From contig JAICJC010000015.1 of the NCBI GenBank assembly GCA_025928655.1, forward strand, positions 1 through 41,065: a stretch of DNA of 41,065 nucleotides, in the 5' to 3' direction. Numbering within the stretch: the stretch's first letter is position 1; each line of letters opens with the position of its first letter. The stretch is from Thermoleophilia bacterium. GTDB taxonomy: Bacteria > Actinomycetota > Thermoleophilia > Gaiellales > JAICJC01. The position numbers and the translations under genes were made by a program. Positions 22,526 through 32,198 of this stretch are shown one piece after another. A model generated the notes under the pieces. The model did not search any database. It was not told the origin of the DNA and saw only the letters and a program-made list of their open reading frames with translations.

Positions 22526-23263
22526 GTGCCAGCCGTCCACCGTTACGGCACCGATCCGAGCCAGGTCGCCGACCTGCACGTGCCCGACGGTGGCGGGCCG
22601 TGGCCGGTCGCCGTGGTCATCCACGGCGGCTACTGGCGCGAGCGCTACGACAGGTCGCTGATGGACGCGGTGTGCGCCGACCTGGCGGAGCGCGGCTGGG
22701 CGGCGTGGAACCTCGAGTACCGCCGCATCGCCGGCGGCCGCGGCGGCTGGCCCGCCACGTTCGACGACGTCTCGTCCGGAATCGAGTTCCTGGCCGATCT
22801 GCAGGCGGCCGGCGCGCCGATCGACATCCGGCGCGTCGTGACGATCGGCCACTCGGCCGGCGGCCACCTCGCCCTCTGGGCGGCAACCCGCGACCGCCCC
22901 CGGGTGCGCGTGAGAGCCGCGGTCGGCCAGGCGGCCGTGACCGACCTCGCCCGCGCGTCGCGGCTGGGCCTCTCCGGCGGCGCCGCGGACGAGCTGATGG
23001 GCGGGCCGCCCGACCGCGTGCCGGAGCGCTACGCGGCGGGGTCGCCGAGCGAGCGGCTGCCCCTGGGCGTCCCGAGCCTGCTCGTGCACGGCAGCCGCGA
23101 CGACACCGTCCCGGTCGAGCTCAGCCGCGACCTGCATGCGGCGGCGGTCGCGGCCGGCGACGATTGCGACCTCGTCGTCATCGAGGGCGACGGCCACTTC
23201 GAGCACCTCGATCCGGCGACGGCGGCGTGGGGTACGGTGAGGCGGTGGACGGCGGCCCTCTGA
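22526..23263 (+). CDS. Kynurenine formamidase-like alpha/beta hydrolase
   Basis: A 245-residue serine hydrolase. HGGYW (H33-W37) is the oxyanion-hole motif of AFMID-type arylformamidases. The nucleophile is S110 in GHSAGGH; the Asp is in VHGSRDDTVPVE and the His in GDGHFEHLD. It would hydrolyse N-formylkynurenine to kynurenine and formate in the cytosol. The next gene, overlapping by 19 bases, encodes kynureninase, which strongly supports the assignment. This alpha/beta-hydrolase form differs from the metal-dependent bacterial KynB. The frame is open far upstream, but a GTG right after the shared promoter gives the natural N-terminus. Confidence 0.85.
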   Translation: MPAVHRYGTDPSQVADLHVPDGGGPWPVAVVIHGGYWRERYDRSLMDAVCADLAERGWAAWNLEYRRIAGGRGGWPATFDDVSSGIEFLADLQAAGAPIDIRRVVTIGHSAGGHLALWAATRDRPRVRVRAAVGQAAVTDLARASRLGLSGGAADELMGGPPDRVPERYAAGSPSERLPLGVPSLLVHGSRDDTVPVELSRDLHAAAVAAGDDCDLVVIEGDGHFEHLDPATAAWGTVRRWTAAL

Positions 23264-28403: not shown

Positions 28404-29024
28404 CTACTTCTTGGCGGGCTCGTAGTAGGGGTTCGTCCCGGAGGCGTGGTCGGTCACGTCGATGACCCGCGTGATGACCGGCACCGCCTCGCGCAGCGCG
28501 ACCTCGATGCCCTGCCGCAGCGTGACCGAGACCATCCCGCAGCCGACGCAGCCCCCGCCCAGGCGCAGGTAGGCGGTGTCGTCCTCCACCGCGACCAGCT
28601 CGGCGCTGCCGCCGTGGGAGGCGATCGCGGGGTTGACCTGCTGGTCGAGCACCTGGATCAGCCGCCGGGCGATGTCGCCGCTCAGGTCGGCGGTCGCGGG
28701 GACGCCGGTCGCGGGGCTCGGCGGCGGGCGGTTGTGGATGACGAGCCCGCCGGTGGCGAGGTCGCCCTGGCGGTCGAGCGTCGCACCGCGCAGGAGCTCG
28801 ACGCTGCTCGCCCGGATGACCAGCGAGATCCGGCCGAGGTCGGCCACGTGGGCGCCGGCGGGCGCCTCCTCGAGCGGCTGCAACGAGAGGTCGTAGGTGA
28901 ACTCGCCGCCCTGGACGCCGACCACCTCGACCCACAGCGCGTAGCGCTCCGGGTCGGTCTCGCGGGCGCGCACCAGCACGGCCTTCTCGATCGCCGCGTC
29001 GGTCACGGTCATCACAGTCTCCAC
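28404..29024 (-). CDS. NfuA-like Fe-S carrier (A-type domain + NifU C-terminal domain)
   Basis: A 206-residue Fe-S cluster carrier. The N-terminal part (about 5-95) resembles an A-type (HesB/IscA) domain but lacks its cysteines, as in NfuA. The C-terminal part (about 115-190) is the NifU-like scaffold with the cluster-binding CxxC in GGGCVGCGMVSVTLRQGIE. A Gly/Ser-rich HGGSAELV segment precedes it. It delivers 4Fe-4S clusters to client enzymes. GTG 29024 is chosen because TACCCT lies 7 bases upstream; ATG 29012, with GGAG six bases upstream, is a strong alternative. Confidence 0.88.
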   Translation of the reverse strand: METVMTVTDAAIEKAVLVRARETDPERYALWVEVVGVQGGEFTYDLSLQPLEEAPAGAHVADLGRISLVIRASSVELLRGATLDRQGDLATGGLVIHNRPPPSPATGVPATADLSGDIARRLIQVLDQQVNPAIASHGGSAELVAVEDDTAYLRLGGGCVGCGMVSVTLRQGIEVALREAVPVITRVIDVTDHASGTNPYYEPAKK

Positions 29025-29030
29025 CCCACG

Positions 29031-29037
29031 TAGGGTA
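29031..29037. promoter_or_regulatory. Symmetric bidirectional promoter (NfuA-like / ATP-grasp)
   Basis: TAGGGTA at 29031-29037 gives TAGGGT on the plus strand (29031-29036) and TACCCT on the minus strand (29032-29037). Each -10 lies exactly 7 bases from a GTG start (29044 plus, 29024 minus). The two leaderless genes are thus served by two -10 boxes offset by one base. Confidence 0.55.
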
Positions 29038-29043
29038 CCGCCC

Positions 29044-30249
29044 GTGGCCCGCGTGCTCCTCCTCCTGCCGACGGCGACCTACCGGGCCGAGGACTTCCTC
29101 GCGGCCGCCGAGGCCGTCGGCGCGGAGGTGGTCATCGCGTCCGAGCGGCGGCAGGCGCTGGGCGGGGCGATGGGCGACCGGGCGCTGCGCGTCGACCTGC
29201 GGCGGCCGGAGCGGGCGGCCGCCGCGGTGGTGGAGCTGTCCGAGCGGGTCGGGCTGGACGCCGTCGTGGCGGTCGACGACGGCGGCGTCGCCACGGCGGC
29301 CCTGGCGGGCGAGCGGCTGGGCCTCCCGCACAACTCGCCCGCGGCGGTGGCGGCGACTCGCGACAAGGCGGCGATGCGCCGCGCCTTCGCCGCCGCCGGC
29401 ATTCCGCAGCCGGGGTTCCGCCTCCTTCTGCCCGGCGATGATGCCGGCGCGGTCGAGCTCCCGACGGTGCTCAAGCCGGTTGCGCTCTCGGCCAGCAGGG
29501 GCGTGATCCGCGCCGACGACCCGGCCGCCGCGGCGGCCGCCGAGGCCCGGATCCGGGCGATCCTGGCGGACGCGGGCGAGGATCCCGGCGGCCCGATCCT
29601 GGCGGAGACCTACGCGCCCGGCGCCGAGGTGGCGGTCGAGGCGCTCCTGCGCGGGGGCGAGCTCGAGGTGCTGGCCGTGTTCGACAAGCCCGACCCGCTG
29701 GAGGGGCCGTACTTCGAGGAGACCATCTACGTGACGCCCTCCCGGCTCCCGGCCGAGGCGCAACGGCGGGTCGAGGAGACGGCGGCCGCCGCCGCAGCCG
29801 CGCTCGGCCTGCGCGAGGGCCCGGTGCACGCGGAGCTGCGGGTCGACGGAGACCGCATTCGCGTGCTCGAGCTGGCGGCCCGCTCCATCGGCGGGCTGTG
29901 CTCGCGGTCGCTGCGCTTCGGGGCCGGCATCAGCCTGGAGGAAGTCATCCTGCGGCACGCGCTCGGCCTCCCGCTGGGCGACCACGCCCGCGAGCGCGCC
30001 GCGTCCGGCGTCATGATGCTCCCGATCCGGCGGGCGGGCACCCTGCGGGAGGTGGGCGGGCTCGACGCCGCCCGCGCCGTCCCCGGCGTCTCGGACGTGC
30101 GGATCACGATCGCGCCCGGCCGTCCGGTCGTCCCGCTGCCCGAGGGCGACCGCTATCTCGGGTTCGCGTTCGCGCGCGGGGAGACGCCCGCCGAGGTCGA
30201 GGCGGCCCTGCGCGCGGCGGATGCCGCGCTCGACGTCGTGCTCGACTGA
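29044..30249 (+). CDS. ATP-grasp domain protein
   Basis: A 401-residue ATP-dependent carboxylate-amine/thiol ligase-type enzyme. The N-terminal pre-ATP-grasp Rossmann-like domain starts ARVLLLLPTATYRAEDFLAAA. The ATP-grasp fold follows, with RDKAAMRRAFAAAGIPQPGF, the nucleotide-binding VLKPVALSASRGV, and the metal/phosphate segment ELRVDGDRIRVLELAARSIGG. Similar proteins join an amino acid or acid to an amine; the substrate cannot be told. GTG start at 29044 from the shared promoter. The S9 peptidase gene follows 17 bases later. Confidence 0.85.
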   Translation: MARVLLLLPTATYRAEDFLAAAEAVGAEVVIASERRQALGGAMGDRALRVDLRRPERAAAAVVELSERVGLDAVVAVDDGGVATAALAGERLGLPHNSPAAVAATRDKAAMRRAFAAAGIPQPGFRLLLPGDDAGAVELPTVLKPVALSASRGVIRADDPAAAAAAEARIRAILADAGEDPGGPILAETYAPGAEVAVEALLRGGELEVLAVFDKPDPLEGPYFEETIYVTPSRLPAEAQRRVEETAAAAAAALGLREGPVHAELRVDGDRIRVLELAARSIGGLCSRSLRFGAGISLEEVILRHALGLPLGDHARERAASGVMMLPIRRAGTLREVGGLDAARAVPGVSDVRITIAPGRPVVPLPEGDRYLGFAFARGETPAEVEAALRAADAALDVVLD

Positions 30250-30266: not shown

Positions 30267-32198
30267 ATGCCCGCCCTGTCCCCCGAGATCATCCGCCGCC
30301 AGGCCGCCGTCGGCGCGGTTGCGCTCTCGCCCGACGGCACGACGGTGGCGTACACGCGCCGGACGGTCGCGGGCGACCGCTACCGGAGCGACCTGTGGCT
30401 CGTTCCGTACCGGGGCGGCCGCTCCCGGCCCCTGACGACCGGCGCCTGGAGCGACTCGGCGCCCGCGTGGTCGCCCGACGGCGAGGTGATCGCCTTCGCG
30501 AGCGACCGGGGCGGCGAGGACGCCAGGGCCGCCCTCTACCTCATCCGCCCCGACGGCGGCGAGGCCCAGCGCGTGTGCGGCGCGCCGCACGGGGGCGTCG
30601 GCGCGCCCGTGTGGTCGCCGGACGGGCGCCGGATCGCCTTCACCGCCGAGGCCGGCCCGGCCCGCTTCTGGACCGGCGACCCCGGGCGGCGCACGGCGCG
30701 CGTCATCCGCACCGTCGACTGGCGCAGCGACGACGGCGAGCGCGAGTACCGCACCCACCTCTTCGTGGTCGCCGCCCGGCCGGGCGCGCGCCCGGTGCAG
30801 GTGACGAAGGGCGACTTCGACGTGGCCGAGCCGGCCTGGCACCCGGACGGCCGCCGGATCGCCTTCGCCGCCCGGATGGGGGCCGACGCCGATCTCGACC
30901 CGAAGCCGCGCATCTATTCCGTCCGGGCCGCGGCCGGCGCGCGCCCCAGGGAGCTGGTCGGCCTGGGCGGGCTCGCGCACCTGCCGTCGTGGTCGCCGGA
31001 CGGCCGCACGCTGGCGTTCCTGGGCACGGACGTCGCCGGCGCGCCCGATCACGCCGAGGTCGAGCTCTTCATCTGGGACGGCGGCGAGCCGCGCAGCCTG
31101 ACGGCCGCCCTCGACCTTCCCGTCACCATCGCGTTCGGCTCCGACCTGCACGACTGGATGGGGCCCGAGATGCCGGCGCCCGCCTGGGACGGCGCAGCGC
31201 TCGTCGTGCCGATCAACCGCCGCGGTCGCGACGAGGTGTGGCGCGTCCCGCTCGACGGCGACCCGGCCCCGCTCAGCTCGGGCGAGACCACCCTGTCGGC
31301 CGTCGCCGTCGCGGGCGGCCGCGTCGTCGCGACCCTGACCGACGACGCCTACCCGCCCGAGGTGTGCGCCGTCGAGGACGGCCGGGTGCGCCGGCTCACC
31401 CGTCACGGCGGGGCCTGGCTGCGGCGGCACCGGGCGCCGACGGTGCGCGAGGTGGATGCCGACGGCGTGCCCGCGTTCCTGTTCGAGCCGGCGGGCGCGA
31501 ACGGGCGCTCGGCGCTCGTCCTCACGCCGCACGGCGGCCCCTACGGCGCGCACGCCCCGACGCCCGAGCTGGACACGTGGGCGCTGGTGTCGCGCGGCTA
31601 CCGCGTGCTCGCTCCGAACATCCGCGGCTCGTGCGGCTACGGCCGCGACTGGGTGGAGGCGATCCAGGGCAAGTGGGGCGGCCCGGACGCCGACGATCTG
31701 ATGACGAGCGTCAAGTGGGCAGTGCGGCGGCGGCTCGCCGACCCCAGGCGGATCGCGGTCATGGGGCTCTCCTACGGCGGCTGGGCGGCGAACTGGCTGG
31801 CCGGGACGAGCGACCGGTTCGCGTGCGTCATCTCCGAGAACGGCGTGGCCAGCATGGTGTCCGCGCACGCGGTGTCGGCCATCGGCCCGTCGTACGACCG
31901 CGACATCGGCTACGGACCGATCCACGAGCACCAGGATGCGCTGGCGGCGTCCTCGCCCATCCGCCACGTCGAGCGGATGACCGCGCCGATGCTGATGCTC
32001 CAGGGCGAGGCCGACCGGGTTTGCCCGCTCGACGACAACTGGCAGCTGTTCGTGGCGCTCCGCGAGCTCGGCCGCGACGTCGAGATGGTGCTCTACCCCG
32101 ACGAGCACCACGTGATGATGGCGACCGCCCGCCCCGACCGCCGCATCGACCGCCTGGAGCGCGTGATCGCCTTCCTGGCGAAGCACTGCCCGCCGTGA
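30267..32198 (+). CDS. S9-family serine peptidase (acylaminoacyl/dipeptidyl peptidase type)
   Basis: A 643-residue cytosolic oligopeptidase. The N-terminal half is a beta-propeller with repeated WSPDG-type blades (APAWSPDG, VWSPDGRRIAF, AWHPDGRRIAF, SWSPDGRTLAF). The C-terminal alpha/beta hydrolase domain has HGGPYG, the nucleophile Ser in GLSYGGW, the Asp in GEADRVCPLDDN and the His in DEHHVM. No signal peptide. It would trim short peptides. It forms an operon with the ATP-grasp gene, which may make a peptide-like bond, but a joint role is speculative. Confidence 0.92.
   Translation: MPALSPEIIRRQAAVGAVALSPDGTTVAYTRRTVAGDRYRSDLWLVPYRGGRSRPLTTGAWSDSAPAWSPDGEVIAFASDRGGEDARAALYLIRPDGGEAQRVCGAPHGGVGAPVWSPDGRRIAFTAEAGPARFWTGDPGRRTARVIRTVDWRSDDGEREYRTHLFVVAARPGARPVQVTKGDFDVAEPAWHPDGRRIAFAARMGADADLDPKPRIYSVRAAAGARPRELVGLGGLAHLPSWSPDGRTLAFLGTDVAGAPDHAEVELFIWDGGEPRSLTAALDLPVTIAFGSDLHDWMGPEMPAPAWDGAALVVPINRRGRDEVWRVPLDGDPAPLSSGETTLSAVAVAGGRVVATLTDDAYPPEVCAVEDGRVRRLTRHGGAWLRRHRAPTVREVDADGVPAFLFEPAGANGRSALVLTPHGGPYGAHAPTPELDTWALVSRGYRVLAPNIRGSCGYGRDWVEAIQGKWGGPDADDLMTSVKWAVRRRLADPRRIAVMGLSYGGWAANWLAGTSDRFACVISENGVASMVSAHAVSAIGPSYDRDIGYGPIHEHQDALAASSPIRHVERMTAPMLMLQGEADRVCPLDDNWQLFVALRELGRDVEMVLYPDEHHVMMATARPDRRIDRLERVIAFLAKHCPP

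What the first reader, a model, noticed from the sequence alone, without database searches (positions are those of the whole stretch)
29024..29044. One symmetric TAGGGTA serving two leaderless divergent genes
Start codons of the NfuA-like and ATP-grasp genes are 19 bp apart. TAGGGT (plus) and TACCCT (minus) overlap with a one-base offset, and each is exactly 7 bases from a GTG. Transcription of the two genes must be mutually exclusive at any instant, which links their expression directly.
Basis: seen in the sequence. Interest (0 to 1): 0.55.

Follow-up and report, generated by a model that had tools for sequence, protein, structure and literature searches.

The report
Shared two-way promoter, leaderless gene pair
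Two genes that point away from each other appear to share one seven-letter RNA-polymerase start signal lying between their start codons, and relatives mostly keep this symmetric signal where the two genes stay paired, so it is probably a real two-way promoter of a known general kind in an unusually compact form.

Summary
TAGGGTA (29031-29037) holds TAGGGT on + and TACCCT on -, one base apart, each 7 nt from a GTG (29044; 29024).

An NfuA-like gene lies divergently upstream of the ATP-grasp gene in 64 of 80 named relatives. In 71 paired loci a -10-like hexamer sits 5-9 nt before the ATP-grasp start in 69. The extra base that makes it symmetric (A7) is present in 59 of 69, against 9 of 138 other leaderless-type promoters. 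In the window's class the heptamer is TAnnnTA in 15 of 15 scorable paired loci, but in 1 of 6 scored unpaired NfuA genes. NfuA also looks leaderless on the same heptamer in 17 of 71 loci. GTG 29024 is supported over ATG 29012 by a same-genus orthologue.

This fits the known bidirectional promoters (shared symmetric -10, start sites about 18 bp apart), in a compact form where both start codons sit at the predicted start sites. Similar sites recur in relatives: 26 of 32 examined sites of the 7/7 geometry open long frames both ways.

Mutual exclusion is plausible. That it links expression is not shown; published E. coli work found no competition at basal activity. There are no RNA data here.

The parts
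29031..29037 (.). TAGGGTA, symmetric heptamer: the proposed shared -10 element
29031..29036 (+). TAGGGT, -10 hexamer for the ATP-grasp gene, 7 nt before GTG 29044
   Evidence: hexamer 5-9 nt before the ATP-grasp start in 69 of 71 paired loci
29032..29037 (-). TACCCT, -10 hexamer for the NfuA-like gene, 7 nt before GTG 29024
   Evidence: TACCCT or TATCCT 6-7 nt before the aligned start in G001, G003 and G004
29044..30249 (+). ATP-grasp ligase gene (P0002), GTG start at 29044, no Shine-Dalgarno-like stretch before it
28404..29024 (-). NfuA-like gene (P0001), GTG start at 29024
   Evidence: start aligned with GTG in G002 and ATG in G001
29010..29012 (-).
   Evidence: ATC at this codon in G001

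Best explanation
TAGGGTA is a bidirectional core promoter. A housekeeping-type RNA polymerase can bind the same -10 in either orientation, because the key bases (-11A and -7T) of one strand are paired to those of the other, and T1/A7 supply -12T on each side. Predicted start sites are about 18-20 bp apart and lie at the two GTG codons, so both mRNAs begin at or next to their start codon and the 19-bp gap is essentially the promoter core. Only one orientation can be occupied at a time. Shown: sequence geometry, conservation, association of the symmetric base with the partner gene, a genome-wide leaderless-type signal. Inferred: actual start sites, sigma factor, steric exclusion. Open: whether the exclusion has any regulatory consequence.
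For: Spacer histogram of TAnnnT before starts peaks at 6-8 nt in this genus. Hexamer 5-9 nt before the ATP-grasp start in 69 of 71 paired loci, A7 in 59 of 69, against A7 in 5 of 87 (this pair removed) and 4 of 51 other leaderless-type promoters. Middle bases change at least 23 times on the protein tree, A7 at least 7. In the class TAnnnTA in 15 of 15 scorable paired loci against 1 of 6 scored unpaired NfuA genes. Loci without A7 have longer gaps; 20 of 21 loci with gaps up to 60 bp carry A7. NfuA start also 5-8 nt from the same heptamer in 17 of 71 loci, 8 of them with start codons exactly 18 bp apart, the usual distance at such promoters.
Against: No transcript data. The conserved motif could in part reflect one direction only; in most loci outside the class base 1 is C, a weaker -12 for the ATP-grasp side, and NfuA has a longer predicted leader in 54 of 71. 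G001 keeps TACCCTA although the ATP-grasp gene is absent; unscored L182, a further copy without this ATP-grasp partner, also holds TATCGTA. The Fisher and rank tests ignore relatedness.
Confidence: 0.82

Rival explanations
1. Only one direction is a promoter here; the other gene uses a start site elsewhere, NfuA starting at ATG 29012 with its GGTGGAG site or being transcribed from inside the ATP-grasp gene.
For: GGTGGAG does precede ATG 29012; in many relatives NfuA has a leader with a purine-rich stretch.
Against: ATG 29012 is ATC in G001 and the aligned start there is ATG with TACCCT 6 nt before it; the symmetric base is kept in paired loci and mostly lost in unpaired ones.
Confidence: 0.12
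2. The conserved heptamer is mainly a regulator-binding palindrome, not a shared -10.
For: It is nearly palindromic and conserved, CYATSATA.
Against: Only about 8 bp are conserved upstream of the start codon, short for an operator; its distance to the ATP-grasp start, 6-7 nt in 61 of 69, is that of leaderless promoters in the same genomes.
Confidence: 0.04
3. The symmetry is a chance by-product of one or two ordinary -10 elements.
For: Given a TAnnnT only one further base (A) is needed, since -11A and -7T are symmetric by nature; the bare hexamer is common.
Against: A7 in 59 of 69 against 9 of 138; five of six scored unpaired relatives lack it.
Confidence: 0.02

Closest known systems
Bidirectional promoters with a symmetric -10 element (Warman, Grainger and co-workers; PMC12825309 Introduction and one Results section read, PMC10268837 passages read)
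   Same: Shared -10 in which -7T and -11A of the two strands coincide; start sites typically 18 bp apart; polymerases exclude each other; often between divergent, functionally linked genes.
   Different: Here both genes look leaderless, so the start codons themselves sit at the predicted start sites and the gap is 19 bp; in the passages read, leaderless genes are not mentioned (0 hits in PMC10268837). Start sites are predicted, not mapped.
Leaderless TANNNT promoters of actinobacteria (M. tuberculosis start-site map, PMC3898074, passages read)
   Same: TANNNT -10 a few bases before the start and no -35 motif; the paper also shows a divergent pair whose mRNAs are both leaderless (PrpD Rv1130 / Rv1129c) and calls closely juxtaposed divergent promoters common.
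   Different: Those passages do not describe a single -10 shared by both genes.

Membership tests
symmetric -10 bidirectional promoter | -11A and -7T of one strand coincide with -7T and -11A of the other (one-base offset of hexamers) | tested here: met
   TAGGGTA at 29031-29037; definition from PMC10268837
symmetric -10 bidirectional promoter | start sites on opposite strands, usually 18 bp apart | not testable with these tools
   no RNA data; predicted start codons 20 bp apart here, exactly 18 in 8 of 17 doubly leaderless relatives
symmetric -10 bidirectional promoter | polymerase transcribes both directions from the isolated sequence | not testable with these tools
   needs in vitro transcription
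leaderless actinobacterial promoter | TANNNT 6-8 nt before the start codon | tested here: met
   7 nt on both sides; genome-wide peak at 6-8 nt
leaderless actinobacterial promoter | transcript begins at the start codon | not testable with these tools
   no start-site data
NfuA (NCBIfam TIGR03341, PRK11190) | score above the curated equivalog cut-off | tested here: not met
   99 bits against 269.35 and 73.3 against 268; hence 'NfuA-like', with a NifU domain (PF01106)

The most novel reading that the evidence does not exclude
Doubly leaderless bidirectional promoters are a recurrent, selected architecture in Thermoleophilia and related actinobacteria: one symmetric TAnnnTA fills a near-fixed gap of 17-19 bp between two start codons, is kept for the same gene pairs over long times, and its obligatory either/or occupancy balances the two products or lowers their noise.
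Probability: 0.35. Interest if true: 0.7.

Novelty: new variant of a known kind. Interest (0 to 1): 0.5.

Why it matters
It would be a minimal case of two genes sharing one polymerase-binding element with no leader on either side, so that promoter and start codons constrain each other. Because the symmetric base is a single position (A7), its presence can be scored from sequence alone. That makes the question 'is promoter bidirectionality selected or incidental?' testable by comparison, and gives simple single-base mutants for testing competition between polymerases.

Tried and rejected
Rejected: ATG 29012 as NfuA start. Chance symmetry. A longer operator: no strongly conserved bases upstream of the start codon outside positions 0-7.

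Raw genome-wide counts are a weak argument. In 61 genomes the 7/7 pattern has 58 sites and 27 for the pattern read backwards, but a control with AT in place of TA has 44. 6/6 has 92 against 30 backwards. What differs is the share with frames of at least 70 codons on both sides among the loci looked at: 26 of 32 (7/7), 15 of 30 (6/6), 10 of 30 (AT control; five of these ten hold a TAnnnTA one base off). I examined 32 of 58, 30 of 92 and 30 of 44 sites, those for which loci were delivered. 10 of the 26 are one orthologous pair of one genus; about 14 gene pairs are distinct by my reading of the translations. In the 6/6 set 10 of 30 are one orthologous group with no long partner frame. In the own genome 6/6 has no site and 6/7 one site without convincing genes.

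My simple gene caller misplaced the second own-genome 7/7 pair, so counts resting on it are rough. Rows dropped: L085 (no start found near residue 1); L161-L165 (cut off by contig ends); L152-L155, L029 and L030 left out of the tree as repeats of named loci; L169, L176, L182 and L183 not scored in the unpaired set.

The function of the pair was not resolved. Paper searches in the held library (listings only) showed no title on a shared -10 for two leaderless genes; this is a limited search. Warman 2021 itself was not held and is known here only through the papers that cite it.

Full report
Observation. The sequence is as described. TAGGGTA at 29031-29037 reads TAGGGT on + and TACCCT on -, offset by one base, each seven bases from a GTG; 19 bp separate the start codons. 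The minus gene is NfuA-like with a NifU domain, below the curated NfuA cut-off. The plus gene is an ATP-grasp ligase with a LAL_C2 domain. The genome is a 3.69-Mb, 193-contig assembly, 72% G+C in the sampled part. Some genomes that the tool calls same-class carry loci whose upstream sequences match those of named records titled Solirubrobacterales and Thermoleophilaceae, and Solirubrobacterales lies in Thermoleophilia, so the class is Thermoleophilia by inference.

Leaderless background. With a simple gene caller on 292 kb of this genome and 343 kb of a same-genus genome, TAnnnT before candidate starts peaks sharply at spacers of 6-8 nt. Leaderless-type promoters are thus common here. At such promoters the base after TAnnnT is A in 9 of 91, four of which are this pair itself, leaving 5 of 87; in flanking genes of 56 relatives' loci it is A in 4 of 51.

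The pair is old. Of 80 named loci with ATP-grasp relatives, 64 have an NfuA-like gene divergently upstream within 600 bp, in records titled Actinobacteria, Solirubrobacterales, Acidimicrobiia, Chloroflexi and others. In several proteobacterial records an NfuA-like gene is nearby on the same strand. In 31 of 54 loci a gene family that includes a B12-binding radical-SAM protein (domains checked on one example) follows the ATP-grasp gene. This suggests, without proof, an iron-sulfur-dependent biosynthetic module. In the window the next gene is an S9 peptidase instead.

The element is conserved as a symmetric one. In 71 paired loci (65, including this genome and G002, plus six) a nAnnnT hexamer lies 5-9 nt before the ATP-grasp start in 69 (spacer 6 in 50, 7 in 11); the seventh base is A in 59 of 69. 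Note that A2 and T6 are fixed by the way the hexamer was picked. The consensus upstream of the start is CYATSATA with little else conserved (63 loci). The middle bases change at least 23 times on the protein tree, base 1 at least 14 and A7 at least 7 times (many forks of this quick tree are weak). Base 1 is C in 33 and T in 29 of 69, so outside the window's class the NfuA-direction hexamer is usually the better one.

Natural experiments. In the class, 15 of 15 scorable paired loci are TAnnnTA. Six scored unpaired NfuA genes read TATCCTT (G003, G004), TATCGTC (L172, L175), TATCCTC (L174) and TACCCTA (G001). These six are only about three lineages. G001 goes against a simple rule: its divergent neighbour is 67% identical to the S9 peptidase that follows the ATP-grasp gene in the window, so the ATP-grasp gene seems to be missing there, yet the heptamer is intact. 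L182, not scored because no clear start was found, also holds TATCGTA. One unpaired ATP-grasp locus, L073, reads TACGATC. Loci without A7 have longer gaps (uncorrected for relatedness).

Start codon of NfuA. G000 and G002 have GTG at the same place, G001 an ATG aligned to it, and codon ATG 29012 is ATC in G001. This favours the GTG.

Double leaderlessness. By sequence, 17 of 71 loci place both starts 5-8 nt from the same heptamer (the ATP-grasp spacer 6-8, the NfuA spacer 5-8; the ambiguous L038 not counted). In 8 of the 17 both spacers are 6, giving start codons exactly 18 bp apart, the usual start-site distance at bidirectional promoters. On the tree this state changes at least 9 times, so NfuA seems to gain and lose a leader while the shared element stays.

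A wider class. The 7/7 geometry occurs twice in the whole assembly. The second site, on contig 47, lies between a trehalose-phosphatase gene and a TauE/SafE-like gene. Across 61 genomes, 26 of 32 examined 7/7 sites open frames of at least 70 codons both ways, against 10 of 30 for an AT-swapped control. Pfam found domains in both proteins of five pairs: trehalose-phosphatase/TauE, response regulator/histidine kinase, formiminotransferase/methyltransferase, GCV_T-type protein/molybdopterin oxidoreductase, and an AP-endonuclease-2-type protein/class-I E-Q tRNA synthetase (the last is a 6/6 site). Site counts alone are not strongly above controls (58 against 27 and 44).

Mechanism and limits. The best reading is a bidirectional core promoter of the Warman-Grainger kind, here in a compact doubly leaderless form. 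Steric exclusion follows from published work (PMC12825309, Introduction and one Results section read). The same work found no competition at basal activity, so direct linkage of expression is unproven. No transcript data were available.

Noticed in passing
G000:C47:26880-26904 (L184 1501-1525): Second own-genome 7/7 site, CACGGGGCCTACAATACCCGCCGTG, between a trehalose-phosphatase gene (-) and a TauE/SafE-like gene (+). A near-identical 25-mer lies in G002 (C16:11305-11329), and a translation in L265 suggests the same pair with 6/6 geometry in another family.
   Followed up: partly
L188-L191, L193, L194, L196-L200: In one genus (g6) a TAGCCTA heptamer with 7/7 spacing sits between the same two divergent genes, by translation both membrane-protein-like, in 11 genomes.
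   Followed up: partly
L247-L249, L251-L253, L255-L257, L259: A conserved TATCGTA/TACGATA site of genus g6 has start codons on both sides, but one side has only a 14-19 codon frame; possibly a short leader peptide or an antisense start.
   Followed up: no
downstream of the ATP-grasp gene in 31 of 54 paired loci, e.g. L032 5269-6669: A gene of a B12-binding radical-SAM family usually follows the ATP-grasp gene; it is not next to it in the window.
   Followed up: partly
L003 (G001), compared with window 30267-32198: In G001 the NfuA-like gene is directly divergent from an S9-peptidase gene that in the window follows the ATP-grasp gene (67% identity), as if the ATP-grasp gene had dropped out.
   Followed up: partly
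window 23207-23226: Another close divergent pair in the window, 20 bp apart by my gene calls, with TACGGT 8 nt before GTG 23227 on + but G, not A, as seventh base.
   Followed up: no
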